A DNA stretch of 64,000 bases from Bolinopsis microptera (lineage: Eukaryota > Ctenophora > Tentaculata > Lobata > Bolinopsidae). The notes beneath the pieces were generated by a model. That model ran no database searches. It was not told the origin of the DNA and was given only the letters and a program-made list of their open reading frames with translations. Position numbers and translations under genes: made by a program. The stretch is from positions 8,904,902 to 8,968,901 of the forward strand of contig NC_087076.1 in the NCBI RefSeq assembly GCF_026151205.1, read 5' to 3'. Shown here in pieces: positions 16,401 through 52,076 of this stretch (position 1 is its first letter; each line of letters opens with the position of its first letter).

Positions 16401-19400
16401 CAGAACCACATCAGTGCCCAGCCCTGAACTACGGGATCTCATACATTCCTGCTGACTACTCCCATCGACTTGAAATATCCGGCCGTAATCTGCCGCAACC
16501 TTTTGGGGTAAGTACCCTAAGTAGATACAAGATAATTTGGAGTTAGTTTGAGAATTAAGAACTTCCGCCTTGTTCATTTAGCAACAAGTTTCCATGTTCT
16601 TGTCTGCCATAATCAGCAGTGGAAGAGGATGTCCCAAATTTAAAAGCTTCGCATAACATGATTGTTATAATTTCGTAGCGTAACTGTTTGAGATGTCTCT
16701 TGCCATAAATAGTGGATGAAATGGCAAGCTTCGATTTAAAATAAGTGTTTAATGTGCTTGCAAAGTTGAGCGACGGTTAAACGAATTTTAATAGATTTGT
16801 TCAAATTAAGAAATGCGGTTGCTTTATGATGATACACTTAAATGGCAAGCACGCTGCATCACAAATGGACGTGATTTCAAAATACACAACATAACACAAA
16901 AGATATCGTTGCAAAAAGTCAATTACGTCATTAACCGATGACGTCACAATGTCACCATTTTTAACGTCACACTCCGTCATAGCAGGACCAAGACAGTTAC
17001 ACATGTGTAGTCAACATACACGGTGAGGAGACCAGACTCCCGGGTACCTACGTTAACGACACTAAAGTTATCTGTGCTACAAACCACACGTTTAACAGTC
17101 CTGCTACCGCTGGTGAAGTCATCTCCCCCGTCAAGGTTCGTTAGATCTAAAGATTGTCTTATCTCTTGATAATATCCTTACAATATCAGCAGGGGAGAGT
17201 TCATAGTTGACACTTGACATAATATGTACTTGATGATCACAGCATCAACATTCTATAACTAGATATTTTCCTTTCCAGGTGCTCTGGAATACCAAAGAAA
17301 TTGAATCAGAACGACAACCCGAAATAGACATCTACCGTTGTGGGGTCCTTGGTAAGGACTGCAGTTCCTGTCGTGCTAACTCCATGCTGAGAAGGTGTGG
17401 GTGGTGCGATGAACTCTCCCAATGTCTCCTCCAGACTGGAGGGTCCAACATATGTCCGGGAGCGTACAGTTCAGTCTGTGTCGGTCTCACTGTCGAGTCA
17501 TTTGAACCTAAACATGGTCCGGTGGAGGGTGGAACTCTGGTGACTATCAGGGGTACTAACTTGGGAAGTAGACCTACAGACATCACTTCTATCAAGATAG
17601 CAGGTCAGTAAAGTTATAGATTTAATCTCTTTAGTCTGCACTGTTTTCGGAGAACTATGTTTATCAAAAAACTGCTCATCCCTTAAAACTTAAAAACAGA
17701 AATCAATGAAACTTTAACTTACTCATTCCCTCAGGATTACCCTGCGAGGTACAGACAGAAGGGTTTGAAGTGTCCCGAGCAGTAGTCTGCCAGACATCCC
17801 CTAGTGGAGTGCCTAAACACGGCTTAGTGGAGGTCACTACTAGTGGGGACCAGTACATTTACCCTAACTTCATGTACTATTACAAGGTAAGGGCAACCTA
17901 GATTCAGCTGTTTATTTATTATAAGTACTGTATATTGTACGTTTTCTGATTATTTGTTATTAAATGTTCTCACTTAGCTACAACAAGCCTCACCTCTAAC
18001 ACCGTCTATCCCACAGAAACACAAGGTTAACGACGTGTCACCTCGTTGTGGTATCGCTGCTGGTGGAACTGATCTCACCATCTCTGGAGACGAGCTTAAT
18101 ATCGGGGTTTCCATGTCTGTTATTGTTGCTGGTACCATGTGTGACGTCATCGACAAGGCTACCCAGAAACAAGTGTCCTGTACCACCAGAGCAGGAGTGA
18201 TCGGAGAGTCCAACCTTCAGGTTAACATTGACGGTGGAATGGTTAACAGCCCCTTCCTGTTCCAAGTGGTGGAAAACCCGATACCTCAGTCTCTGAGCAT
18301 TAACAGTTCCATAAGCTCAGGAGGGATCCCAATAGAGATTGGCTTTAAAGAAGGGTACAGGCTTGAGTGCGTTCAGAAACTGTCGCTTATATTCGAGACT
18401 GTCAACAGAGTCAACGGTGAAAATAAATGTGAGAAATCAGGTTCCAAATTCTTGTGTAAAACTCCCACATTGGACATGGACATGGCAGGGCTCTCGGACC
18501 TTCCTGTATCTTATGTGACTGCCCATCTGAAGGCTGACAACCATCTGATAGCACTGAATCCTTTCCCTGTCCACGCTGATCCTATACTTGATCCTGTTAA
18601 TAATACTAATGAAGGTTTTTATTTAACTTATTTGTATGACAAACCCTATAAATGTAATCGTTTTTAGTTTTATTCTGCCTCACAAGGAGTGCTTGTTGAA
18701 AATCAAGTTACCATACGACCATAATAGATTAAGTTTTAAAACGTTCATTCTTTTCAGATGGTTTTATTGAGTGGCCTCTCTCTGGTGGACAGCAGTTTGT
18801 CATTAACGGACAAGGTCTGAACAAAGTTTCCGGTCTAGAGGTTTTTGTCGGAGGTCTTGCTGTAACTATAAACGACATAACCGAGAACCTCATTATCATC
18901 ACACCACCCAACTACAATACCTACAAGGAACACAAAGCCCAGATGAAGGCACTCTCCCGCCCTAAGCGTGAGGGGTCACGCAAGTTGCGTGAGGCTGATG
19001 ATGACGTCACAGATGCACCTGACAAGCGTTCTCACGACAAGAAGTATTCGTCGGAGTACATGGCGATCGTGACAGTGAAACTTGGAAACTGGAAGCACAC
19101 AGCAGGAAAGCTTTACTACACCAAGAGCCCTTCGGGTGGTATTCCTTATGTGGCTATCATCATCCCTATTGCTGGTTTTATTGTTCTAGTCGTCCTCCTG
19201 TCATATGTGGGACTCAAGTAAGTTCACATAAACCTCTGATATTATTATATCTTACATTGCTATTTAAATATTCAGACAACATTTTTGACATGTTTTTGTA
19301 AAATTCTGAATTATTTCTAACCAAACAAATTTTTCTAGATATCACAGAAGCCAGCGGTCTCATCGTCGAACTCTCAAAACGGTCCGCATGCACATGGAGA

Positions 19401-21760
19401 AACTGGAGATGCGAGTGGCAAACGAATGCAAAGATGCGTTCACTGCACTCCAAATGCAGCTGACGGACGTAAACGGAAACATTGCCGAAATTCCTTTCCG
19501 ACCTTTCTCGGACTTCATGTCGAGTGTTTTGTTTCCCGGCACAGAAGCTGAAACTAAGATCTTCTCGCCAGACTGAGTGCTCCCAGCTCTAAGGTGGTGG
19601 AGACAGCACGGTTAGCTCAGTTCAGACGACTGTTAAGAGATAGGGCCTTCTTGCATAAGTTCGTCGAGGTTGTGGAGGCTGATCCACACTTTGATGTGGC
19701 AGCCAAGTGTAAGATGGCCAGTTTGTTGGTCATCGTCATCGGCAACGACATGGGCTACCTCACTGAGGTTCTCTTCTCATTGATGGAGAAGTTGATAGAC
19801 AAGTTCCTGGCAAAGAAGAACCACCCTCAACTGCTGCTCCGGAGAACGGAGAGTGTAGCTGATAAACTCCTCACTCACTGGCTCAACTACTGTTGTTACC
19901 AGTATCTCCGACAAAACGCAGGAAATGCCATCTTCACCCTTTTCTCTGCCATCAAACAACAGCTGGACCTGGGACCTCAAGACGAGATAACGTACGAGGC
20001 TAAACTGAGTCTGAACAACGAGAAGATGTTAAGAGAGACAATCGAGTTTAAACCTATTGTAGGGACTGTCCGGGATCTTAACAAGAAGGAACATTCCGTC
20101 ACCTTACTGACTTGTGACAGTATCAGACAAGCAAAACGAAAGGTACAGTTTAATAAGAAGACCTCTTGATTTTTTTGACCTGTTCAGTTTCTGAGAAAGT
20201 AGAGAACAACATTTAAATTGTATCTCTTTTCAACATGTATTTGGTATAACTTTCAAATAAGTTAATCGAATGAAAGCTTAATTCGCCACTTTTCAGGTTA
20301 TCGAATCAGTACACCGAGGTAAACCCGCCTCTCAAATCCCCTCGATTGAATCCTTCGATCTCATGTACATCAGAACAGGGAACACCCCAATGATCCTCCG
20401 TGAGAATCAGGCCCCAATCGTGGAGGGATGGAGAAAGCTGTGTACTCTAGCGGACTACAAGATAGAAGATCCTACTCCAGTTCTCGCGATGATACCACTC
20501 AGCACAGACTCCGAACACAGCTCTCTCAGTCCTACTACTGACAGGAGGAAAGCTAGCTTCCTGACTACTAAGCGATACAGGAGTAAGGGTAACCTGATAA
20601 CAGCGGGAATGAACACGAGTGACACTGACAAGTCGGAAGAGCGACACCAGGTCTATCACCTGGTGAAACCTGGTTGCGACATCAACGAGTCTGACACCCT
20701 CCTCAGCACCAAGATGATGTCCGAGGTAAGAACATTTTTTATCAACTCTGAGATATTTGAATTGTTTGCAAATATAACTAAGTTGAAAAAATTTAGAGGG
20801 GATGCGTTTGTTTGTTGATTGATTTGTTCTCTGTCCATATTGATATTTTACCACATATCCTCTAACCCCTCCTCTCCCCAGGTGTTCCTTACCCGTTTAT
20901 TGTCAACTAAAGGTACCCTACAACCCTACGTAGACGACCTCCTGGGTAACGTTTTCATGTCACGTGAAAGAGTCCCTCCGGCTGTTAAGTACCTGTTCGA
21001 CTTCCTGGAGCGTCAGGCTCAGCGGCATAACCTACTTCACAATCAGGTACGTGATTATCCTCGGCCTTTTCAATCTGAATTCTGATTTTAAGTGTTCTAC
21101 TTTTGTCTTTCTACACTTTCATCCTCTCCTATATCAGGATATCGAATTAACGGCCCTTATTTCCAGGCTTGTATTCACACGTGGAAGAACAACAGTTTGT
21201 CACTTCGGTTCTGGATGAACGTGATAAAGAATCCTCAATTCCTATTTGACATCGACCAGACCCCTACTATCGACTCTTCTCTGAATATCGTGTGTGGCGT
21301 GTTTATGGACTCCTGCTCGACCTCAGATAAGGGGCTTACAAAGGATTCTCCTATAAACAAACTCCTGTACGCTAAAGATATTCCAAGATACAGGAAACAA
21401 GTCCAGAAACACTACGAACAGGTAGGCTGAACAGAGATTAAGGTTTAGCCGGTAGTCGGCTAGTATTGCTGTTTTAAAAACACTCAATCTCCCCTCAAAA
21501 TGATTAAGATAAAGTTTTTTCATGAACTAAAACTCTCCCTCCCTCAGGTGTCGTCCCTCCCTCCAGCACCATTAGACTTCCTAACAGGTCTCCCTCCTAC
21601 TGGCCTCAACTCCACCGTGGCCGTCTCAGAGCTCCTACAAATCGCCAGCAAGTACTCCAAACAGTTACAAACTTCTTTTGGACCCGACTCACCCTCTCTT
21701 AACCTAAAATTCACATCCATCATTGACGCTAGCTTAATGACAGCTCCCAATTTAGTGTAG
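13407..21760 (+). CDS. Plexin receptor (5'-partial; 15 exons)
   Basis: A plexin, the single-pass semaphorin receptor whose cytoplasmic GAP acts on Rap/Ras-type GTPases. Exons: 13407-13598, 15047-15175, 15335-15673, 15822-15946, 16318-16507, 16986-17135, 17279-17603, 17735-17886, 18017-18614, 18758-19217, 19339-20142, 20297-20725, 20882-21046, 21167-21421, 21548-21760; all have GT-AG borders and agreeing phases. Exons 1-2 are the last Sema blades. Three PSI modules follow (CEKCIAVRDPHCGWC; CTSCTSAAVGCGWC; CSSCRANSMLRRCGWC), then IPT domains, a TM helix (about 19140-19210) and the split GAP with LLLRRTESVADKLL and LRFWMNVIKNPQFLFDI, which carry the usual catalytic arginines, around a Rho-binding domain. 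The stop at 21758-21760 is a normal C-terminus. Exon 11 has a frameshift at about 19561-19576: its length (804) is one base short of what its flanking phases require. The N-terminal Sema exons were not found. Confidence 0.93.
19339..20142 (+). other. Plexin exon 11: juxtamembrane and GAP segment with frameshift
   Basis: The first reading frame runs from the transmembrane anchor through MRVANECKDAF and SSVLFPGTEAETKIF and hits TGA at 19574-19576. The homologous protein resumes in another frame as RLSAPSSKVVETARLAQF, continuing through LLLRRTESVADKLLTHW and AIKQQLDLGPQDEIT. The two frames overlap around 19561-19573. No GT-AG pair removes the break without deleting the conserved LFPG motif. A single missing base restores the frame, so this is either a sequencing or assembly error or a real disabling allele. 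Every downstream exon is intact. Confidence 0.8.
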
Positions 21761-24342: not shown

Positions 24343-25895
24343 TCATGTACTGGCCAGAGAGTCGACGAATTTCTTGCGGTTGTTAAAACACGTAGTGGCA
24401 AATCTAGCAACGACTCTCGTGAGGTGGACTTGACTTTCATTCGTGATTAATTCAATGATTTCACTATTGTTGCTGATGAATTTGAGGACGTTTGCTCCAG
24501 GGATGACAGTGTAAACATAACAAGATGTCGCAGATGGTTTGATTAAATTTGATATGATTGATTGGATCTTGTCTAGGACTTTTCGCCTCGATGCAGCGTT
24601 AAGATCACAATGGTTAAGGAAGTGATCTTCATTCTCAATGATACCAGAACCTAAGACTATATTGCACCAGGAGCATATTCGCTCATCGCGAGGAGTTTGA
24701 TTATATCGGCCAAGTTCAATTTCGAGTCGATGTGCACTGATCCGCAGTCTTGTGATAATGATATTAGCACGGTCTGCATATTTGATGACACTGTCTAGGT
24801 AATACTCTTTGTTAAATTTGGATTTTAGGTCACGATAGAATTCTAATTTCCGAGAAGTGTTGATACACTGATACAGGATCCCCAATATTCTCTAAAGCTA
24901 CTTTTCAAAGTTTTAGTAATGACGTGTGGTGTGAATATTTTACTCCCGATGGGTCGTGTTGATTGCGGAGGAATTCGTTTCTTGAAACCGTTGTGAATAA
25001 GAAAGTCCTCTTTTGGTGGTTTTGCGATACTCGGGTTTCTTTCGAAAATTGACTTGGAGTGATTGTTTTTGAGTGTGCGGTAGGCTGTGACATGATCGGT
25101 AGAGAAACATGGGTCTAGCGCGAGGACAGGCTCCAAACCCCTGTACCAGTCCAATTTCATGTTCATCTGTTCTTTGAAAGCTAAGGATACAAGGGAGTTA
25201 TCTTTGAGATTTTTCAAGCGTTGGCTATATTTGAGAGTGAGGTTAATACATTCATAGATTAATGGGTAGCGGCCTGACTCACCCCAGACGCCTGCGTTGC
25301 TGGTTTTACGATTTACACCCAGTGACCATTTAAGAAAGTGAAGGTGAACTTTTTCGCTGTTCAGAAGACTTATTTTCTTGAGGATACTAGTTTGAAATTT
25401 TGTTTTTGTGTCGGGATCCATATTGAGATCGACTTGTTTTGTTATGTGTTTTATGATAGCCATATTAGGTGTGTAAATAGGCGCTTCGTAAAGAACGATA
25501 GGTTTAATAAGAGCGTCAAAGAGTGTTGTTAGAGAACGGAATGATAATTTGGATTTGTTTACTGAGCTTTTCATGCCATAAAGTGCACGCATGGCTTTCT
25601 TTTTGAGCTCAGTTCGGGCATTTGTGAATGTGCCGGATTTGTGTATTTCGATTCCTAGATAACAGTATGACTCGACTTCTTCTAACAAGTGATTACCAAT
25701 TTTGAGGGGAACCGGCTGATAATTATCGAAGCGGGAATTAAATTTCATGAGTTTAGTTTTATCTGCATTAATTTCGACGCCCCATTCCAAGCAGAAATTG
25801 TTCAAAGCATCGAGTTGCTTTTGGAGGGTTTTGGGGTCCAGTGCCAAGAGTATCAGATCATCTGCCCATAGTAAGTGACTGATAAGTTGGTTCAT
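24343..25895 (-). pseudogene. 5'-truncated non-LTR retrotransposon (LINE family A), reverse transcriptase C-terminal half
   Basis: The minus-strand frame starts inside the reverse transcriptase at SHLLWADDLILLALDP, which contains the catalytic ADD box. It continues through the thumb region (EVESYCYLGIEIHKSGTF) into a C-terminal region with a cysteine/histidine cluster (ERICSWC, then NEDHFLNHC). The reading frame breaks once, at about 24845-24885, where two frames overlap. Nothing upstream of the ADD box is present, so this is a dead 5'-truncated insertion. The C-terminal architecture matches the longer copy at 50320-52076, so the two belong to related elements. The copy lies between the plexin and sulfotransferase genes. 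Confidence 0.9.
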
Positions 25896-27925: not shown

Positions 27926-27927
27926 TT

Positions 27928-28113
27928 GAGGCAGCGGGATTAGCCTATTTTCCCCCTCTTACATAAGTTGGACCACACACAAGTTGCTAAACTCGTGTGT
28001 GGTCGTGTGTTAAATCAGCTGAGGCAGCGGGATTAGCCTATTTTCCCCCTCTTACATAAGTTGGACCACACACAAGTTGCTAAACTCGTGTGTGGTCGTG
28101 TGTTAAATCAGCT
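27928..28113 (+). repeat. 93-bp tandem duplication (two copies)
   Basis: Two direct, nearly identical copies begin GAGGCAGCGGGATTAGCC and end GTGTTAAATCAGCT. Each holds a short inverted repeat around CACACACAAG and CTCGTGTGTG. The first copy abuts the 5' terminus of the Helitron-like element. Confidence 0.9.
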
Positions 28114-28149: not shown

Positions 28150-28340
28150 CAACATATTTTTACACATTTAGTTTGAGAACCTGGCATTTGGCAAGCAAGG
28201 ATCTGAGAGGCAGGGATAGTGAGGGAGTTGGGACCTCTCTTTTCACTTCACTGTTAGACATTGTTTCTACTCGGCTACGCTTATAGTTGAAATATTTATA
28301 TAACGTCTGCATTGTACCAACATAATTTGAATTACAGTCT
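28150..28340 (+). pseudogene. Duplicated 5' flank of the sulfotransferase gene, lacking exon 1
   Basis: This segment matches 29160-29290, sharing CTGGCATTTGGCAAGCAAGG and TTGTTTCTACTCGGCTACG, and later matches intron 1 sequence around 29450-29510. The portion carrying the ATG and signal anchor of exon 1 is absent, so this copy is a partial, non-coding duplicate about 1 kb upstream of the real gene. The duplicated flank may include promoter sequence. Confidence 0.8.
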
Positions 28341-28625
28341 TTACTTTATTTCTGCAAAGAGTTGATTTATTTCTGCAAAGAGTTGATTTATTTCTGCAAA
28401 GAGTTGATTTATTTCTGCATAGAGTTGATTTATTTCTGCAAAGAGTTGATTTATTTCTGCAAAGAGTTGATTTATTTCTGCATAGAGTTGATTTATTTCT
28501 GCAAAGAGTTGATTTATTTCTGCATAGAGTTGATTTATTTCTGCAAAGAGTTGATTTATTTCTTCATAGAGTTGATTTATTTCTGCAAAGAGTTGATTTA
28601 TTTCTGCATTAATAGTTGATTTAAA
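28341..28625 (+). repeat. 21-bp minisatellite, about 13 copies
   Basis: The unit TTATTTCTGCAAAGAGTTGA (plus T) is repeated with A/T changes in the CAAAG/CATAG position. The intact gene copy at about 29485-29510 carries only a single unit, so the array expanded in the duplicate. The 85-codon frame with a seven-residue IYFCKEL period is an artefact of the repeat. Confidence 0.95.
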
Positions 28626-29302
28626 GTCAATAGGCCGATTCGCAGTTTGCCTCGTTAATCCGTTTGTTTTTATTTTATGACAATATAATATATGAAAAAA
28701 TGGAAAAGAAATTACGAATTGATCGAATTCGCTTTTGTATTATTAGCGATTTTTGGCCCTAGTATTAGTAGAACTAGATGTTGTTACGGGGAAAAATGCC
28801 ACTTTTCTGCAACAAGCCTTTGTGATCTTTTAAAAATCCAAATAACAAATCATCGGACACAAATATGTAATATTTAAAGATCAAGAATCTGGTTAGAAAT
28901 ACAAATGAGGCCTAATCAGTCACGCGCACCACAAATGTGTGTTTTAAACTTTGACATCCTAGAACTCATAGGCCAATCAAGTTACTGTGTCTGTATTCGT
29001 ATTGTGTAAGCAGTCAGATCACATCATCCTGAGCTCTTCTTTCTTGCGTAAAAATGTGTACCAAAATGGACTGAAGCTAGTTCAGTTATGTTATGTTTAA
29101 AGTTTTTACAATGCGCATACGTGTATAGTAGTGGGGGCAGAGTGATAATAAATAATATATTCTTACACATTTAGTTAGCGAGCATAGAGAAACTGGCATT
29201 TGGCAAGCAAGGATCTGAGAGGCAGGGATAGTGAGGGAGTTGGGACCTCTCTATTCACTTGACTGTTAAACATTGTTTCTACTCGGCTACGTTCCTGCCA
29301 GC

Positions 29303-32300
29303 ATGTTCGTGGAGAAGAATACCCTCAGATGTGTTGCAGTTCTTGGTTCGTTGTCCTTGTTACTCCTTTATTTCAGAGATAGTATAGGTGAGAATGATTG
29401 TTGTTGTTTTGTTAAACTTTCATATTTTAAATTTAAATATAGCGTTTGTGTCGGCTTTATACCAGCGTAATTCAAATTATAGCCTTTATTCCTGCATAGA
29501 GTTGATTTAATGTCGGTCTAGGCCAATTCGCATTAAGCTACTTGTCCGATTAAAGGGGGTTAAGACGCATTTTCCCGGAATAAGCCGCTGCCACGTGACG
29601 AAGCATTATGCCTATAATGAGGCTGCAAGATCAAATTAAAAACATGTCCTGGTTTAATGTAAAACAATTAAAGAATTAAGTGAAACAGAACAGCGCAAAA
29701 ATAGTTCTGAGAAGAAAGAAAGTTAAAGGATCAGTCAGTTAAACGTTTTAAAAACATTCGCAATTTATTCGTATATATTTTGATGTTTAATATTAATAAG
29801 GATGTCCAAATCTTTGAAAATCAAATATAGTTAATATAATATGGCTGCCCGCCAGCCGCCATGTTATCATAACTATATTTGATTTTCCGCACATCTTTTT
29901 ATATCTTATCGTAGTATAAGTTGAATTAGTTGAACTGTTAGCCAACCAGATACGTTTTCAGAAGCTGATCTGGCGGGGTGGAAACAGTCACAAGAGTTCC
30001 TCAACATTAACATACACAACGAACAAGTACAAGTTGAGAAAGTACAGAAAGAGGAGTCTCACACATATTCAGAGTTACTCCCCGATTCGACCCCCACCAC
30101 AACAGTAACTTCTACTACTCCTAATTCAACACAGAATAATGACGACTCTTCTGATAAAGAGGAGGAGATTGAAACAGGTAGGAAATTATACCAGATGTAT
30201 ACCAGATGTATACCAGATTTATACCAGATGTATACCAGATGTATACCATATGTATACCAGATGTATACCAGATGTATACCATATGTATACCATATGTATA
30301 CCAGATGTATACCAGATGTATACCAGATGTATACCAGATTTAAACCAGATGCCCTCCCCCACTCCCAGACTGTCCTGCTCCGGGTGTTTTACCCCAGGTT
30401 TTCGTTCTTATAATCAATATCAATAATATCAGATAACGGTACCTGGAACAGTGCAGTTAAAGCAAGAAATCAGAGTTATAAAGGTTCGCTCTCTTTGGAA
30501 ATGGAGGTTATCATAGAGTCCGCTAAAGGTCACCATGTACAGCTTGATGATAGACTCAAGAGGACGATATCTTCCATCGATCAGGTAGTTATTGTTACCA
30601 TGGTAACTGTGATTATACGTAACTATAGTTACCATGGTAAATTTAATAATACGTAAGTTACTATTGATAATACATAGTAACCATGGGAAATGTTACCATG
30701 GTAAATACATAATGATACGTAACTAAAGTTACCATGGCAAATGTAATAATACGTAACTAAAATTACCATGGTAACTCCTCAGAGAAGTGGTGTAGCGCCC
30801 AGTCAGGCAACCCTACGAGACCACATCTCACAACAGTGTAAAACATTAGGACTTGACAACGGAGAGGTAGAAATTAAACCTAGACTAGTTTACTATAACA
30901 CTGAGCACAAGCTCATCTACGTGGCTAACCCTAAATGCGGTGAGTTTAGATGTCAGAAAAGCAATTTTAATTAATTAATGTGAAGCATTATCATTATCTA
31001 GCTAATTTTAATTTTCTTTGATAGATTGCAGTGGTAAGATTAGATTCTAATGTAAACTGGTGGGCCAATTAATTGTTTAATATAATAAAAATAAGCTTAT
31101 AATTATGAGAAGGCTTATTATTACCAGCAGGCAGAATTGACGTATTGTCTTGTTACTAAATCGCCTAAGAAAGTGTTGCCCCAACACTAGTTTTAAATAA
31201 AAGTCCTCGAGGTGACAAGGAAATGATTTCACAGGTAGCACCTCCTTTAAGAAGTTCATGTTGAAACTAGGAGGAGATAAAAGAGAATACTCCGAGATGG
31301 AGGAGGTACACAACGAGGAGAAGAATCCACTTTTAAAGTTAGTCCCACTTCACACAAAGTTAGTCAGATTTCACACAAAGTTAGTCACACTTCACACAAA
31401 GTTAGTCACACTTCACACAAAGTTAGTCACACTTCACACAAAGTTAGTCACACTACACACAAAGTTAGTCACACTTCACACAAAGTTAGTCACACTTCAC
31501 ACAAAGTTAGTCACACTACACACAAAGTTAGTCATACTTCACACAAAGTTAGTCAGACTTCACACAAAGTTAGTCCCACTTCACACAAAGTTAGTCCCAC
31601 TTCACACAAAGTTAGTCACACTTCGCACAAATTTAGTCACACTTCACACAAAGTTAGTCACACTTCACACAAAGTTAGTCAGACTTCACACAAAGTTAGT
31701 CACACTACACACAAAGTTAGTCATACTTCACACAAAGTTAGTCAGACTTCACACAAAGTTAGTCCCACTTCACACAAAGTTAGTCCCACTTCACACAAAG
31801 TTAGTCCCACTTCACACAAAGTTAGTCACACTTCGCACAAATTTAGTCACACTTCACACAAAGTTAGTCACACTTCACACAAAGTTAGTCAGACTTCACA
31901 CAAAGTTAGTCCCACTTCACACAAAGTTAGTCCCACTTCACACAAAGTTAGTCACACTACACACAAAGTTAGTCACACTTCGCACAAATTTAGTCACACT
32001 TCACACAAAGTTAGTCACACTTCACACAAAGTTAGTCACACTTCACACAAAGTTAGTCACACTTCGCACAAATTTAGTCACACTTCACACAAAGTTAGTC
32101 ACACTTCACACAAAGTTAGTCACACTTCACACAAAGTTAGTCACACTACACACAAAGTTAGTCACACTTCACACAAAGTTAGTCCCACTTCACACAAAGT
32201 TAGTCACACTACACACAAAGTTAGTCACACTTCACACAAAGTTAGTCCCACTTCACACAAAATCAGTCACACTTCACACAAAGTTAGTCACATTTCACAC

Positions 32301-34190
32301 AAAGTTAGTCACACTCCACACAAAGTTAGTCACACTTCGCATAAAGGTAGTCACACTTCTTTTGAATAATACACAGTTTACACTCCCTCTGTCCTTCAGG
32401 AGCCTCTGGGAAGCACCTCTAGAGTTGCAAAAGGAAGCTTTGAGAACATACTACAAAGTAACATTCGTCAGAAACCCCTTAGTTCGTCTTGTGAGCGGGT
32501 ACAGGAACAAGATAGTAAGAATTCCTAAGGGGCATTACGTGGACCAAATACAGGTACAGCCCCCGGCCCCCCCCCCCCTGTATTAGTGCTTTTCATGCAA
32601 CAAGTAAAACAAATCCTTTATGTCATGTTTCCAGGGTTTGGACTGGAATTTCCCGCTTAAAGAACCTCCATCACGTTACATTACATAATTTTCTGAAACA
32701 TATATTACATTTACAATAAATTATGCAATATCATAACATTACAATCAACAAAATAAATTTAATCGCAGAATCTCAAATGCAAATAATCGTAAATTAAACA
32801 CAAAAAACAAATAAACATGCAATAAATGAATATACGAATGCGCATCTTTTGTCAACTTACTCCTTCATAAAAGTAGTATGATATAACACTAAACAGCAAA
32901 ACCCGATTTACTGTGCAGTATACATTTTAGGGGGCATACAGTATACACCAAAACTGTCCAACCCAAATGACCTCATAGGAAGCTCAGTAACCATCTAGCG
33001 CAACGTTTCCACACCAAAAATTGTTTTCGAGGATTCCCATTTTTGTAATCGAGCATTTCCTGGTTAAAGTGCATCTTTCGGAAAAGCACAATTTGTTTTG
33101 TTGAGAGGCTATAAGTCAATCATTTCTTGTGATATCGAGCTGAAATGTTGCACGAAGTTTATTCATATCTTGTTCAAGATGTGTGTAAAATCTTGATATC
33201 GTATCGGAAAAGGCTGCGTTTTATAAAATGCACTTTGACCAGGAAATGCTCGATTACAAAAATGGGAATCCTCCACAAAAAATTGTATGGTATGGAAAGG
33301 GTGCGCTAGATGGTCACTGAACTTCCTATGAGGTCATTTGGGTTGGAAAGTTTTGGTGTATGCCCCCTTAAGAGGTAAGGCCTTGATTCAAATAGCAGAA
33401 TTGTCTACGTTTTGAGCTAAGGTTTTTGGGTTAGAAAAAAAAAGAATTAAAAACATGTACCTGGCAGGAGATTATAGCTCAGAACTACGGAGTGGATGCG
33501 GCACTGAGTTGGATGCCAAGGAGGCAGTACCGGCCCTCGTTCGAACAGTTTGTAGAGTACCTTATCTACACGGGAAATGGTAATTAATTAAACATACTAA
33601 TTAATTATTTAGCTAATTGACTTGTTCAGTTAATTACAATGTGTTGATAATATTCGGTTTATGATTGTAAGCTAAGTAGTTGTAACAGTAAGCCTTGTAT
33701 TTGAGAAAATAATGTAAATTAATTAAAACTATTGGGCAGCTAGAGAGAATTACCACTGGGCCCCGTTTGCAGACTATATAGGGTTATGTGGCTCAACAGT
33801 AAAGTACGATCTTATCGCACAGCTCGAAACAGCACATCAGCACGTAGAGGAGATGAAGGAGATGGTAAGTTAATCTACAAGTTTAGATCTAGGGTGAAAT
33901 ACTGATATTTTAAACCAAGTTTACACTAATTACTAATTACTAAATACTAATTATTACAGGTGCCAAGTTTAAAAGATATTCCCTTTCCCCCGAGCCGGAC
34001 TGAAAGAGCAGCGGATCAGTACAGTTCGGAGGAAGTGACCGCCCTGGCCTTCTCCAACCTGACCGAAACACTGAAAACAGGCGTTTATAAGCTGTACGAG
34101 AAAGAGATCAAATTATTGGGCTATTCACTGATACACGATCAAAACTTTCCCTTTCTCACATCGGCAACTGTTCATTTAGAGGATATATAG
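29303..34190 (+). CDS. Golgi carbohydrate sulfotransferase (Sulfotransfer_2 / CHST8-14-like), nine exons
   Basis: Type II Golgi enzyme predicted to move sulfate from PAPS to a glycan such as chondroitin, dermatan or an HNK-1-type sugar. Exons: 29303-29387, 29962-30177, 30433-30584, 30783-30939, 31235-31337, 32400-32553, 33468-33579, 33740-33864, 33960-34190; phases agree and give 444 residues. Exon 1 encodes a short cytosolic tail and signal anchor (VAVLGSLSLLLLYF); exon 2 a Ser/Thr/Glu-rich stem. The 5'-phosphosulfate loop is IYVANPKCGGSTSFKKFM across exons 4-5; the 3'-phosphate motif is VTFVRNPLVRLVSGYRNK in exon 6. Later family signatures are FEQFVEYLIY, NYHWAPFADYIGLC and KYDLIAQLE. NGT and NQS are possible N-glycosylation sites. 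Introns 2, 3 and 5 are largely minisatellites and intron 6 holds a MITE. The acceptor sugar cannot be told from sequence. Confidence 0.92.
30187..30345 (+). repeat. 11-bp minisatellite in sulfotransferase intron 2
   Basis: The unit ATACCAGATGT is repeated about 14 times with CATATGT and GATTT variants. It begins about 10 bases after the exon 2 donor. Because the period is not a multiple of three, retained sequence would read as a 33-bp (11-residue) pattern. Confidence 0.95.
30585..30782 (+). repeat. Sulfotransferase intron 3 made of GTTACCATGGTAAC palindrome repeats
   Basis: The palindrome TTACCATGGTAA, or a one-base variant, occurs about five times, separated by AATAATACGTAACTA-like linkers. 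It fills nearly the whole 198-bp intron from just after the donor to the acceptor (CTCCTCAG). Each unit can form a small hairpin. Confidence 0.85.
31338..32362 (+). repeat. 21-bp minisatellite (about 48 copies) carrying a 5' splice donor in each unit
   Basis: The unit CACTTCACACAAAGTTAGTC (plus A) begins exactly at the exon 5 / intron 5 junction, where the exon ends TTTTAAA and the intron begins GTTAGTC. Most units therefore repeat the AAA/GTTAGT donor. Some variants (AAATTTAGTC, AAAATCAGTC) lose the GT. Intron 5 (31338-32399) is 1062 bases, a multiple of three, and contains no stop in the gene's frame, so the whole exon 5 to exon 6 stretch is one open frame of seven-residue repeats (LHTKLVT). 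Confidence 0.95.
32927..33371. mobile_element. Long-TIR MITE in sulfotransferase intron 6
   Basis: The left end GGGGGCATACA and the right end TGTATGCCCCC head imperfect inverted arms of about 150 bases, sharing CCCAAATGACCTCATAGGAAG and GAGCATTTCCTGGT. The right flank is TTAA and the left TTTA, consistent with a TTAA target site as used by piggyBac- and Kolobok-type elements. The arm sequence recurs at 56228-56470. Confidence 0.75.
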
Positions 34191-38865: not shown

Positions 38866-41417
38866 TTAAAACTGCACAGATGTTGGGGCACGAGAAATCA
38901 TATCCACCCCACTCCCAACCTCATCATCAGAGTCCATCCCACTGTGTCCCACCCTGACATGAGGTCCAGTATCAGTGGCTTCATTAACAATAACAGGAGA
39001 AATGTGGTAAGTAGACAAGCTCCTGACACGTCTCAAGAAGAACTGAGAGGTAAGGGTGTATGTGAGGGGGTTTACCACAACTGAGAAGTAGTAGAAGAGG
39101 TAGGTGAAGACGAAGACCTGACTGGAGACCACACCCCGGTAGTAGGAGGACACCACCATGAAGGGCAACCAGCAGGCACAGTAGAAGAAGGTAACAAAGC
39201 AGCCCCGTCTGGTTAACCTCAGAACGCCCGGTACCTGGTACTTGGTGTGGTAGTAGCCCACTATCACGTACATTACAGCACACACCACAGTCGGGGTGTA
39301 GAAGAACAACACTGACTGGGAGGTCATGTACGCGGGGTGGGACGTGCCCGTGAAGTCACAGCGGCGTGATTTGTTGCTGTATTGGATGTAGAAACTGTGG
39401 GGTGTGATGTGACCCTTTATTGTGAAGGAGGTGAGAAAGAGAGCCGGTATTAGCCAGGAGACTAAGCTGAGTTTTATCATGAACCAGTTGGTGCAGCGGT
39501 CAAATCCTCTCACTGAAAATCATAATGTTAGTGAGACAAATCTTAGATAAGGGCTCTTATTCTATCATCAAAGTTACCATCAGATTAGGCGGTAAATTAC
39601 GTGACTGTGATAAAAAAGAACTTGTCGAAATTCAACCAAAGTCGTCAAACAGATTACACAATACACCGTAAACTGTACCATGCTGAAGTTTGGGATAAAA
39701 GTTCTATAACATAAGTCCAGATTTAAAGAGGCCATATTACCCGTGACGACTAAGATGGATAGAGTGATAGGCACGATCACCAACAAATCCACTTTTGAGC
39801 AGAAGGAAACAATGTAAGTAGTAACCACACAGAAACCCCGGTTGTCAAACAGCTTCTGGAGGAACAAGCCTGCACAATAATTGGAAGTGAATTTTCCGAC
39901 TGTGTGATTAATTTATGAGATCAAATAAATTCCAAATTAAAGTAGGAAGGAAGAAAGAAGCTTTTTATTTGAACTTCTTTGCTGGTGCTGATATTATCGA
40001 AAGAACATTCCTAAGCAGCTCATTTAGTCCCACAATCTCAATATTCAGAATTATTTAAATCTTACCTGGTCCCCTAATGAGACAAGCAACAAGAGAGAAG
40101 ACTAAGTTGGAGATAGCGAGGTTGATGTAGACAATCTTCTGAGCGATAATCCGCTGCTTGTACAGACTGTGAAGCAGAAATGCCAATAAGAAGCTGTTCA
40201 GGGTCACGCCCACACAACCTGGACAGGAGTGTTAGAACTGAAGGATAACGCCCACACAACCTGGTCAGGAGTGTTATAACTGAAGGATAACGCCCACACA
40301 ACCTGGACAGGAGTGTTAGAACTGAAGGATAACGCCCACACAACCTAGACAGGAGTGTTATAACTGAAGGATAACGCCCACACAACCTGGACAGGAGTGT
40401 TAGAACTGAAGGATAAAGCCCACACAACCTGGACAGGAGTGTTAGAACTGAAGGATAACGCCCACACAACCTGGACAGGAGTGTTAGAACTGAAGGATAA
40501 CGCCCACACAACCTGGACAGGAGTGTTAGAACTGAAGGATAACGCCCACACAACCTGGACAGGAGTGTTAGAACTGAAGGATAACACCCACACAACCTGG
40601 AAAGAAGTGTTAGAACTGAAGGATAACGCCCACACAACCTGGACAGGAGTGTTAGAACTGAAGGATAACGCCCACACAACCTAGACAGGAGTGTTAGAAC
40701 TGAAGGATAACGCCCACACAACCTGGACAGGAGTGTTAGAACTGAAGGATAACGCCCACACAACCTAGACAAGAGTGTTAGAACTGAAGAATAACGCCCA
40801 CACAACCTAGACAAGAGTGTTAGAACTGAAGGATAACGCCCACACAACCTAGACAAGAGTGTTAGAACTGAAGGATAACGCCCACACAACCTGGAAAGAA
40901 GTGTTAGAACTGAAGGATAACGCCCACACAACCTAGACAGGAGTGTTAGAACTGAAGGATAACGCCCACACAACCTGGACAGGAGTGTTAGAACTGAAGG
41001 ATAACGCCCACACAACCTGGACAGGAGTGTTAGAACTGAAGGATAACGCCCACACAGCCTGGACAGGAGTGTTAGAACTGAAGGATAACGCCCACACAAC
41101 CTAGACAAGAGTGTTAGAACTGAAGGATAACGCCCACACAACCTGGAAAGAAGTGTTAGAACTGAAGGATAACGCCCACACAACCTAGACAGTAGACAGG
41201 AGTGTTAGAACTGAAGGATCGTTCAAATATTCGTAATATTATTATTTATTAGTAAGAATATTCGTAACATTCAGTGATCTGTCCATTCCAGACCCCCGCC
41301 CTCTTATCGGCTGTATTAGCATACAGCTCTCTCCTTTTACTTACCTATTATAATTAGAGAGTATGCGGTGAAAAGAGCCAAAGAATCTGCCTCAGAAGCT
41401 TCACCACTCTCGACCAT
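38866..41417 (-). CDS. Rhodopsin-class seven-transmembrane receptor, four exons
   Basis: G-protein-coupled receptor. Exons on the minus strand: 41417-41345 (ATG), 40218-40066, 39869-39741, 39512-38866; phases agree and give 333 residues. TM1 spans the exon 1/2 junction (AYSLIIIGCVGVTLNSFLLA). TM2 has INLAISNLVFSLVA, in place of NLAxxD. TM3 ends VVTVRGFDRCTNW, a variant (DRC) of the D/ERY motif. TM6 has FFYCACWLPFMVV with the CWxP core, and TM7 has VVVNPLTYTLTSQFF, an NPxxY variant. Cysteines at GFCVV (start of TM3) and RRCDF (second extracellular loop) can form the usual disulfide. The ligand is unknown; very short extracellular N-terminus, so peptide, amine or lipid ligands all remain possible. 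Intron 1 is almost entirely a 42-bp minisatellite that duplicates the exon 2 acceptor. Confidence 0.9.
40205..41215 (-). repeat. 42-bp minisatellite (about 24 copies) carrying branch point and 3' splice acceptor
   Basis: In gene orientation each unit reads GTTGTGTGGGCGT, then TATCCTTCAGTTCTAACAC, then TCCTGTCCAG. The first 13 bases are the first bases of exon 2; the rest is the end of intron 1, including a CTAAC branch-point-like motif, a pyrimidine stretch and YAG. The changeable base before AG is C or T in the units I read, so the acceptor dinucleotide is kept. The units keep two long open frames, but in the receptor's own frame each unit contains TAA. Confidence 0.95.
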
Positions 41418-50334: not shown

Positions 50335-52076
50335 GCTTTACCAAAGGAAGTCAATGTAATGACCATATATTCACGCTGATGTCCACCATAGAAAAATACA
50401 AGAAAGTCAAAAGTAAAATATATGCAGTGTTCATTGATCTTCGCAAAGCTTTCGATCTAGTCTGCAGACAAGCTCTCATGTTCAAACTAGCCTGCTATGG
50501 TGTCAATGGTGGCTACTACGACATCATCAAAGACATGTACAGCAAATCAGAGGGTCATATCAAGATGAATGGGAAAATCAGTGAAGCATTCAAGATCCTT
50601 AAAGGAACTGAACAAGGACACCCACTTAGCGCTCAGTTTTTCAAAGTTTACTTTAAAAAGCTTTCTGACCTCCTCAGCGAAGCTACTGCGAACTGTCCGA
50701 CACTCGCTGGACTTTCAGTGACTCACCTAGCGTGGGCTGATGATCTAGTAATCCTCGGCCTAGATCCTGAGTCTCTCCAAAAGTTGCTTACGATTATTGG
50801 GGACTACTGTAACGAATGGGGTCTGGAAATCAATATCTCCAAAACCAAATTCATGGTCTTCAATGGCAAAGGACCAGACATCCCAAATTGGCGTCCTTCC
50901 ATTCACGAAAGAGATATCGAGATGGTCTACAGCTACTGCTATCTTGGGATTATTATAAGCAGCACAGGGAAATTTCGGCAAGCAACTGACTCTCTATACC
51001 GTAAAGGACTTGGAGCTTACTTCAGCTTGAGAAGCACTATAGACCGGAGAATCGTTGATGCATCCTGCCTTAACAAATTATTTAACACCCTTGTTAAGCC
51101 AATTTTACTTTACGGCTGTCAAGTTTGGGCCCCGGTTCTACCCACCGTCAATAAGGTCCTCTCTAGCTTCAGCAAGTTTCACAATCTTGATCATGCGGTC
51201 TCTCACATCGCTAAACAGCAACTTGAGCAAGTGCATCTACAACACCTAAAATACCTTCTTGGTATAAACAGAAGGGCAGTCAATGCTACAGCCTGGGGAG
51301 AAACTGGCTCATACCCAATCATTATTGAAATGTTGAAACTGAGTACTAAATATTTCAAAAGAGTTATGAGCCTCCCCTCTACACAACTAGTCAAAGCTGC
51401 AATGACTGAGCAGATTAACCTCAAATTGTCATGGTTTGTAGGCATCGAATCAATCATCAAATCATTCAATAACATCGACCTTCTTGAAAGGAATTCATCG
51501 TCGCTGTTGAACGCAACCTCACTCGCAGACTCCTGCAGCCCTGAATTAATCACAGAGAACCTGAAAAAACAGTTCCGCGATTCCTGGGGTTCTCTGGTGA
51601 AAGATTCTAGAAAACTATCATTCTACAGTGAAGTCAAAACAGAATTTGCATGGGAGCCATATCTAACCTATGCTAGGTCTTTTCAGGACAGAAGGGCAAC
51701 CACACAGATTCGGTCCAGTTCTCATCACCTTAGAATTGAAAGGGGGAGATATGACAAAACTCCAATTGATGAAAGGACCTGCAACTATTGCGAGCGTAAC
51801 ACCAACCAGCTATTCATCGAGGACGAGAATCATATGCTCCATTTCTGCCCCCTAGGGAAAGGTCCTAGGGACAAATTTCAAAATCTCAGTGGAAACCTAC
51901 TCAACAATGTTGGTAATGGTAGCTTCAATCTTGCCTCCACGTTCATGTCGCAGTCTGATTGCAAGGATACTCCCAGTGATGAGGACGTAAGTTTGATCAA
52001 ACTCTCAACCAGCACCATTAACAAGATCTACAGACTAACCCTCAACTTCAAAGACAGTCTGAAAGCAGATAATTAG
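50320..52076 (+). pseudogene. 5'-truncated LINE (family A) with long RT C-terminal frame
   Basis: It starts in RT motif 2 (VGFTKGSQCNDHIFTL, with its first part duplicated at 50309-50355). It continues through VFIDLRKAFDLVCRQAL (motif A), KGTEQGHPLSAQFF (motif B) and THLAWADDLVILGLDP (motif C, ADD) to a thumb and a C-terminal Cys/His cluster (ERTCNYC, then DENHMLHFC). The frame is intact for 565 codons to a stop at 52076. The N-terminal endonuclease and early RT are absent, so it cannot be autonomous. It is related to the copy at 24343-25895. Confidence 0.85.

What the first reader, a model, noticed from the sequence alone, without database searches (positions are those of the whole stretch)
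31235..32553. Intron built from about 48 in-frame copies of its own 5' splice donor
Seen directly: the sulfotransferase exon 5/intron 5 junction (TTTTAAA/GTTAGTC) is the first unit of a 21-bp array, and most units repeat AAA/GTTAGTC. The 1062-base intron is a multiple of three and stop-free, so retention or use of any internal donor gives an in-frame product with 7n extra residues. The insert would fall between the 5'-phosphosulfate loop and the 3'-phosphate motif. Inference: a tunable, possibly length-polymorphic protein linker or a tolerated splice-noise array. I do not know of a described system like this.
Basis: partly seen in the sequence, partly recalled or inferred. Interest (0 to 1): 0.85.

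Follow-up and report, generated by a model that had tools for sequence, protein, structure and literature searches.

The report
Intronic minisatellite copying its splice donor
An intron of an animal-type sulfotransferase gene has grown into about 49 copies of a 21-base repeat, 43 of which carry an identical in-frame copy of the splice donor; this is a large example of a kind of boundary-spanning minisatellite already described in lancelets and in one human gene.

Summary
In my model of a nine-exon Sulfotransfer_2 gene, exon 5 (31235-31337) ends AAA|GTTAGT; intron 5 (31338-32399, 1062 nt) is almost wholly a 21-bp array (31335-32359). Of 49 units, 43 carry the identical donor AAAGTTAGT in one frame, and exon 5 to exon 6 reads through without a stop. 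An internal donor would add 7n residues; full retention adds 354, which is not 7n.

The special reading is weakly supported. About 65% of random 21-mers stay open when repeated, substitutions between units look neutral for protein, and a donor-dead unit is present four times.

The kind is in print: boundary-spanning minisatellites with repeated splice signals are called "mirages" in amphioxus, where normal splicing is reported to be kept; human IFI6 has a minisatellite with several donors.

My reading: a mirage-type minisatellite, spliced mainly from the first donor or first few, with possible minor +7n isoforms. Unusual is the number of identical in-frame donors. Which donor is used is open: a reported preference for intron-proximal donors would favour the last units. 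Species unidentified; no transcript data.

The parts
29303..34190 (+). Nine-coding-exon carbohydrate-type sulfotransferase gene (416 aa): 29303-29387, 29962-30177, 30517-30584, 30783-30939, 31235-31337, 32400-32553, 33468-33579, 33740-33864, 33960-34190
   Evidence: Eight introns, all GT-AG, one open frame ending in a stop; PF03567 Sulfotransfer_2 E 6.7e-34, profile 5-252 of 252. Hand-built model, no transcript
31235..31337 (+). Exon 5, carries STSFKK of the presumed 5'-phosphosulfate-binding loop; ends AAA, phase 2
   Evidence: motif name recalled
31338..32399 (+). Intron 5, 1062 nt, GT-AG, stop-free in the gene's frame
31335..32359 (+). 21-bp minisatellite, 49 units (the last one partly diverged), consensus AAAGTTAGTCACACTTCACAC; 43 units carry AAA|GTTAGT
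31335..31343 (+). Presumed main donor AAA|GTTAGT, unit 1 of the array
   Evidence: Phase match with exon 6; second lowest of the gene's eight donors by a recalled human-like matrix
32322..32330 (+). Last intact donor (unit 48); would leave a 75-nt intron and add 47 heptads
32400..32553 (+). Exon 6, carries VTFVRNPLVRLVSGYRNK, the presumed 3'-phosphate-binding motif
   Evidence: the part from exon 6 on matches Pfam from profile position 74; motif name recalled
30187..30351 (+). 11-bp array starting at +10 of intron 2
30590..30774 (+). 34-bp array starting at +6 of intron 3; the five other GT sites of that intron that score at least as high as its own donor lie inside it (30603-30771)
   Evidence: recalled matrix

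Best explanation
Intron 5 holds a minisatellite that sits across the exon 5/intron 5 boundary, so its unit includes the donor (last three exon bases and the first intron bases). Repeated duplication of single units and of blocks of units filled the intron with identical donors. Because 21 is a multiple of three and the unit has no stop in this frame, every extra donor is in frame. The gene is most likely spliced mainly from the first donor or first few, which gives a complete Sulfotransfer_2 domain; use of later donors, if any, adds 7n residues at a place where the family profile takes small insertions at little cost, and is tolerated rather than selected. It works like an amphioxus 'mirage' or the human IFI6 minisatellite. 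Shown: array, donors, frame, domain fit, block repeats, neutral pattern. Inferred: growth by duplication across the boundary, which donor is used, tolerance, length polymorphism.
For: Array and donors. Among the 15 best-scoring GT contexts of 31235-32553, the only in-phase ones in exon 5 or intron 5 above a score of -6 are the 43 AAA|GTTAGT sites; GAG|GTACAC (31306) and AAG|GTAGTC (32347) are out of phase. Domain fit, tested on the part from residue 147 on: donor 1 119.9 bits, +7 aa 118.8, +35 aa 112.8. Block repeats: a six-unit block recurs; 0.15% of 2000 shuffled unit orders reach this. Substitution types 8 non-synonymous: 3 synonymous against 44:16. Donor-dead unit type present four times, each after the same neighbour type. 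Three of the four Tandem Repeats Finder arrays in this gene's introns start within 10 nt of a donor. A different 21-bp unit is present once at 29484 and about 13 times near a duplicated stretch at 28345. Precedents: PMC3087553 and PMC3902484 say that mirages duplicate splice sites without disturbing normal mRNA.
Against: No transcript was available, so first-donor use is not shown. PMC6002489 says the intron-proximal of two comparable donors is favoured, which would favour the last units. The donor is weak by a recalled matrix: 1.09, gene range 0.28 to 6.46; two GT sites in exon 6 score higher (1.7, 1.51), and 222 of 3768 GT sites elsewhere in the window score as high. Pfam hardly separates 0 from +7 residues, and the spacing between the two halves (14 residues for 21 profile positions) is matched by the +7 form, not the first-donor form. 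Only three exonic bases are in the array and a longer exonic seed is not supported, so it spans the boundary only just. The arrays of introns 3 and 5 nearly fill their introns (slack 13 and 37 nt), so their nearness to the donor says little. The donor 9-mer is somewhat less variable than the rest of the unit (2 of 9 against 6 of 12 sites), not significantly (P 0.37).
Confidence: 0.7

Rival explanations
1. Late-donor use: identical donors compete and the one nearest the acceptor wins, so much of the array is coding sequence and the real intron is about 75-117 nt.
For: Intron-proximal preference for comparable donors (PMC6002489 passage); units 46-48 would leave introns of 117, 96 and 75 nt, and the gene's shortest other intron is 95 nt; the read-through frame is open and is modelled as long helices.
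Against: Substitution types look neutral; 10 of 49 units carry proline in a would-be helix. More than 300 residues would enter the catalytic domain. The other introns among the first seven are 160-914 nt, so long introns are usual here. Amphioxus mirages are reported to splice normally.
Confidence: 0.12
2. The repeated weak donors serve as a U1 snRNP landing array that helps this exon or intron to be recognised or protects the transcript from early polyadenylation; the product is still mainly the first-donor mRNA.
For: Weak donor by a recalled matrix, repeated 43 times; [quoted passage not shown] 2010, title seen in the reference list of PMC6002489).
Against: The U1-protected stretch given in PMC6002489 (23 nt upstream, 12 downstream) exceeds the 21-bp spacing, so neighbours could hardly all be bound at once (inference); donor-dead units were copied too; donor sites not significantly less variable than the rest (P 0.37).
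Confidence: 0.1
3. A selected, tunable, length-polymorphic linker made by choosing among in-frame donors.
For: All 43 donors in one frame and 0 stops; small inserts cost little domain score.
Against: No sign of protein constraint; openness is the common outcome for a 21-bp repeat (65%); 3 of 63 single changes make a stop, so none in 11 substitution types is expected 58% of the time.
Confidence: 0.05
4. Assembly artefact in copy number: the array is real but its length is wrong.
For: Block repeats within the array are easy to misassemble; PMC3087553 says that one amphioxus mirage was aberrantly assembled in the draft.
Against: Distinct unit variants in an ordered pattern; no indels.
Confidence: 0.03

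Closest known systems
Amphioxus 'mirages' (Adh3, globins BflGb6 and BflGb9, troponin C; PGBD5 repeats are likened to them)
   Same: Minisatellite-like tandem duplications at exon-intron boundaries, many units carrying splice signals; reported Adh3 units of 10-72 bp, a range that includes 21 bp (PMC3087553, PMC3902484, passages)
   Different: Here about 49 units with 43 identical in-frame donors and only three exonic bases in the unit; the globin BflGb6 case has 6 or 3 units of 150-160 bp. Organism here not established
Human IFI6 (6-16/G1P3) minisatellite, Turri et al. 1995
   Same: [quoted passage not shown] downstream repeat units are used, giving three mRNA species
   Different: Use of several donors is reported there and unknown here; unit length and copy number there were not seen in a call
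Internal tandem repeats at exon-intron boundaries in human segmental duplications (PMC2812944, passages)
   Same: Repeats at boundaries can generate alternative splicing and be kept or spliced out
   Different: Recently duplicated primate genes; on average 30-bp units repeated four times

Membership tests
Mirage (boundary-spanning minisatellite of cephalochordates) | Tandem repeat spans an exon-intron boundary | tested here: met
   Array begins at 31335, three bases inside exon 5 of my model; extension further into the exon not supported
Mirage (boundary-spanning minisatellite of cephalochordates) | Many units carry the splice signal | tested here: met
   43 of 49 units; here AAA|GT, not the AG/GT named in PMC3087553
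Mirage (boundary-spanning minisatellite of cephalochordates) | Normal splicing is kept | not testable with these tools
   No transcripts; the spliced model gives a full domain
Mirage (boundary-spanning minisatellite of cephalochordates) | Length instability between alleles or cells | not testable with these tools
   Only internal block repeats seen
Mirage (boundary-spanning minisatellite of cephalochordates) | Found in a cephalochordate | not testable with these tools
   No genome is held for the window; species not identified
IFI6-type multi-donor minisatellite | Several repeat units used as donors in mRNA | not testable with these tools
   Potential donors only
Sulfotransfer_2 (PF03567) | Profile match above the gathering score over the whole domain | tested here: met
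   118.6 bits, cut-off 22, profile 5-252 of 252

The most novel reading that the evidence does not exclude
Forty-three identical in-frame donors are used along a gradient, giving a ladder of sulfotransferase isoforms (416 + 7n residues) with a heptad, possibly helical, insert between the two halves of the PAPS site, whose length distribution varies with allele and cell.
Probability: 0.07. Interest if true: 0.75.

Novelty: new member of a known kind. Interest (0 to 1): 0.38.

Why it matters
An intron with 43 identical, equally phased donors, mostly at even 21-nt spacing, is a natural test of how the splicing machinery picks among equal 5' splice sites: first, last or spread. It would also take boundary-spanning minisatellites to a high copy number, and it shows that an in-frame array can look like a designed protein repeat without any sign of protein constraint.

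Tried and rejected
Long exonic seed: I tried to show that the end of exon 5 (CCACTTTT) is a decayed unit; anchored alignment is no better than chance (P 0.44, 5000 random 21-mers), nor is the local one (P 0.34) or the flank after the array (P 0.16), so I dropped it. Exon 5 ending at GAG|GTACAC (31306): out of phase with exon 6. Using Pfam to decide which donor is used: 0 and +7 residues score alike. Solved-structure search: one irrelevant hit, E 0.49, so no template for the loop. Single-sequence AlphaFold of the read-through frame 31258-32586 gave long helices with pTM 0.31; I give it little weight, as I do the Pfam hits of that frame to coiled-coil families. Donor-site constraint: P 0.37. Donor-like sites in the intron 3 array: five score at least as high as its own donor, but so do four in intron 6, where Tandem Repeats Finder found no array. 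Own-genome search: none held. Turri 1995 and Canestro 2002 are not held; I know them here only through citing papers. Papers opened, passages only: PMC4526556, PMC3087553, PMC3902484, PMC2812944, PMC6002489; in PMC2572611, PMC3618361 and PMC8724738 I saw only reference-list entries. I saw no described array with this many donors in the searches; these cover open-licence papers only and the lists were cut (20 of 40 and 12 of 28 shown).

Full report
What is there. The window holds a sulfotransferase gene on the + strand, with nine coding exons between 29303 and 34190 in my hand-built model. All eight introns are GT-AG, the joined frame gives 416 residues and a stop, and the protein matches Pfam Sulfotransfer_2 over positions 5-252 of 252 with E 6.7e-34. 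No transcript was available. Exon 5 ends at 31337 with AAA and exon 6 begins at 32400, so intron 5 is 1062 nt.

The array. Tandem Repeats Finder places a 21-bp array at 31335-32359 with 48.8 copies and no indels. Of 49 units listed, 43 carry AAAGTTAGT; four carry AAATTTAGT, one AAAATCAGT and the last AAAGGTAGT. The 43 donors are identical over positions -3 to +6 and in one frame. Exon 5, intron and exon 6 read through with no stop in the gene's frame; the other two frames have 60 and 5 stops.

How surprising is the open frame? Of just under 20,000 random 21-mers of the window, 65% are open in a given frame when repeated and 98% in at least one of three. Only 3 of 63 single changes of the unit make a stop, so none in 11 substitution types is expected with probability 0.58. 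The 11 types, counted by hand from the table with unit 49 left out, are 8 non-synonymous and 3 synonymous, against 44 and 16 available (Fisher P 1.0). There is no sign of protein constraint, though 11 types give little power. Nor is each donor kept: the type with the destroyed GT is present four times, each time after the same neighbour type, as block duplication would give. A block of six units recurs, which 0.15% of 2000 shuffled unit orders reach.

Where the extra residues would go. The part up to the end of exon 5 matches profile positions 5-52 (20.0 bits, below the cut-off of 22 on its own) and the part from exon 6 on matches 74-252 (93.2 bits), so the insertion point lies between the two parts of the nucleotide-binding site (motif names recalled). 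On the domain part alone, donor 1 gives 119.9 bits, one extra unit 118.8 and five extra units 112.8: the profile takes small inserts at little cost. Between the two matches the first-donor protein has 14 residues for 21 profile positions; one extra unit would make it 21. The profile therefore does not single out donor 1. The read-through frame is a heptad repeat with leucines, modelled by single-sequence AlphaFold as long helices (mean pLDDT 73, pTM 0.31); I give this little weight.

Context. Four Tandem Repeats Finder arrays lie in this gene's introns: an 11-bp one from +10 of intron 2, a 34-bp one from +6 of intron 3, the one studied here, and a short 7-bp one from +61 of intron 8. The arrays of introns 3 and 5 nearly fill their introns, so nearness to the donor is informative only for intron 2. 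In intron 3 five other GT sites score at least as high as the real donor by a recalled matrix, all inside the array; but intron 6 has four such sites and no array, and the other five introns tested have none. A 105-bp stretch just upstream of the start codon is 96% identical to one 1012 bp further up; a 21-bp unit present once at 29484 is an array of about 13 at 28345. The sequence after the unit aligns between the two places; the stretch between the 105-bp copies and the unit was not recovered by the alignment, so that this is one duplicated segment is an inference. It suggests that such units expand readily here.

Known relatives. [quoted passage not shown] For human IFI6, PMC4526556 (passages) says that two downstream repeat units are used as donors, giving three mRNA species, and cites Turri et al. 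1995 on a minisatellite providing multiple splice donor sites; that paper is not held. The finding is therefore a member of a described kind, if a large one. Whether the window comes from a lancelet I could not test.

Which donor? Two lines disagree. Mirage reports suggest the normal first donor. The passage in PMC6002489 says that of two comparable donors the intron-proximal one is favoured, which would mean units 46-48 and introns of 117, 96 or 75 nt. The donor is weak by a recalled matrix, second lowest of eight. I put mainly first-donor (or first-few) splicing with minor noise at 0.7; a long-read cDNA experiment would settle it.

Noticed in passing
40206-41213 (minus strand): A 42-bp array in what by eye looks like the first intron of a GPCR-like gene; on the minus strand it holds TTCTAACAC 22 times, and CCAGG or CTAGG 16 and 8 times, so most units look like a branch point plus acceptor: the mirror case of a donor array. 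The downstream exon 38866-39513 has no Pfam hit.
   Followed up: partly
28175-28279 and 29187-29291: 105-bp stretch repeated at 96% just upstream of the start codon, with a 21-bp unit single at 29484 and about 13-fold at 28345: a possible before/after pair for minisatellite growth.
   Followed up: partly
30187-30351 and 30590-30774: Two more introns of the same gene have arrays starting within 10 nt of the donor.
   Followed up: partly
27927-28113: 93-bp tandem duplication, 2.0 copies with 100% matches.
   Followed up: no
24843-25895 (minus) and 50379-52076 (plus): Reverse transcriptase reading frames (RVT_1), probably LINE-like elements.
   Followed up: no
18035-18667 and 19594-20169 (plus): Exons of a plexin-like gene: TIG domain, plexin cytoplasmic RasGAP and RhoGTPase-binding domains.
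   Followed up: no
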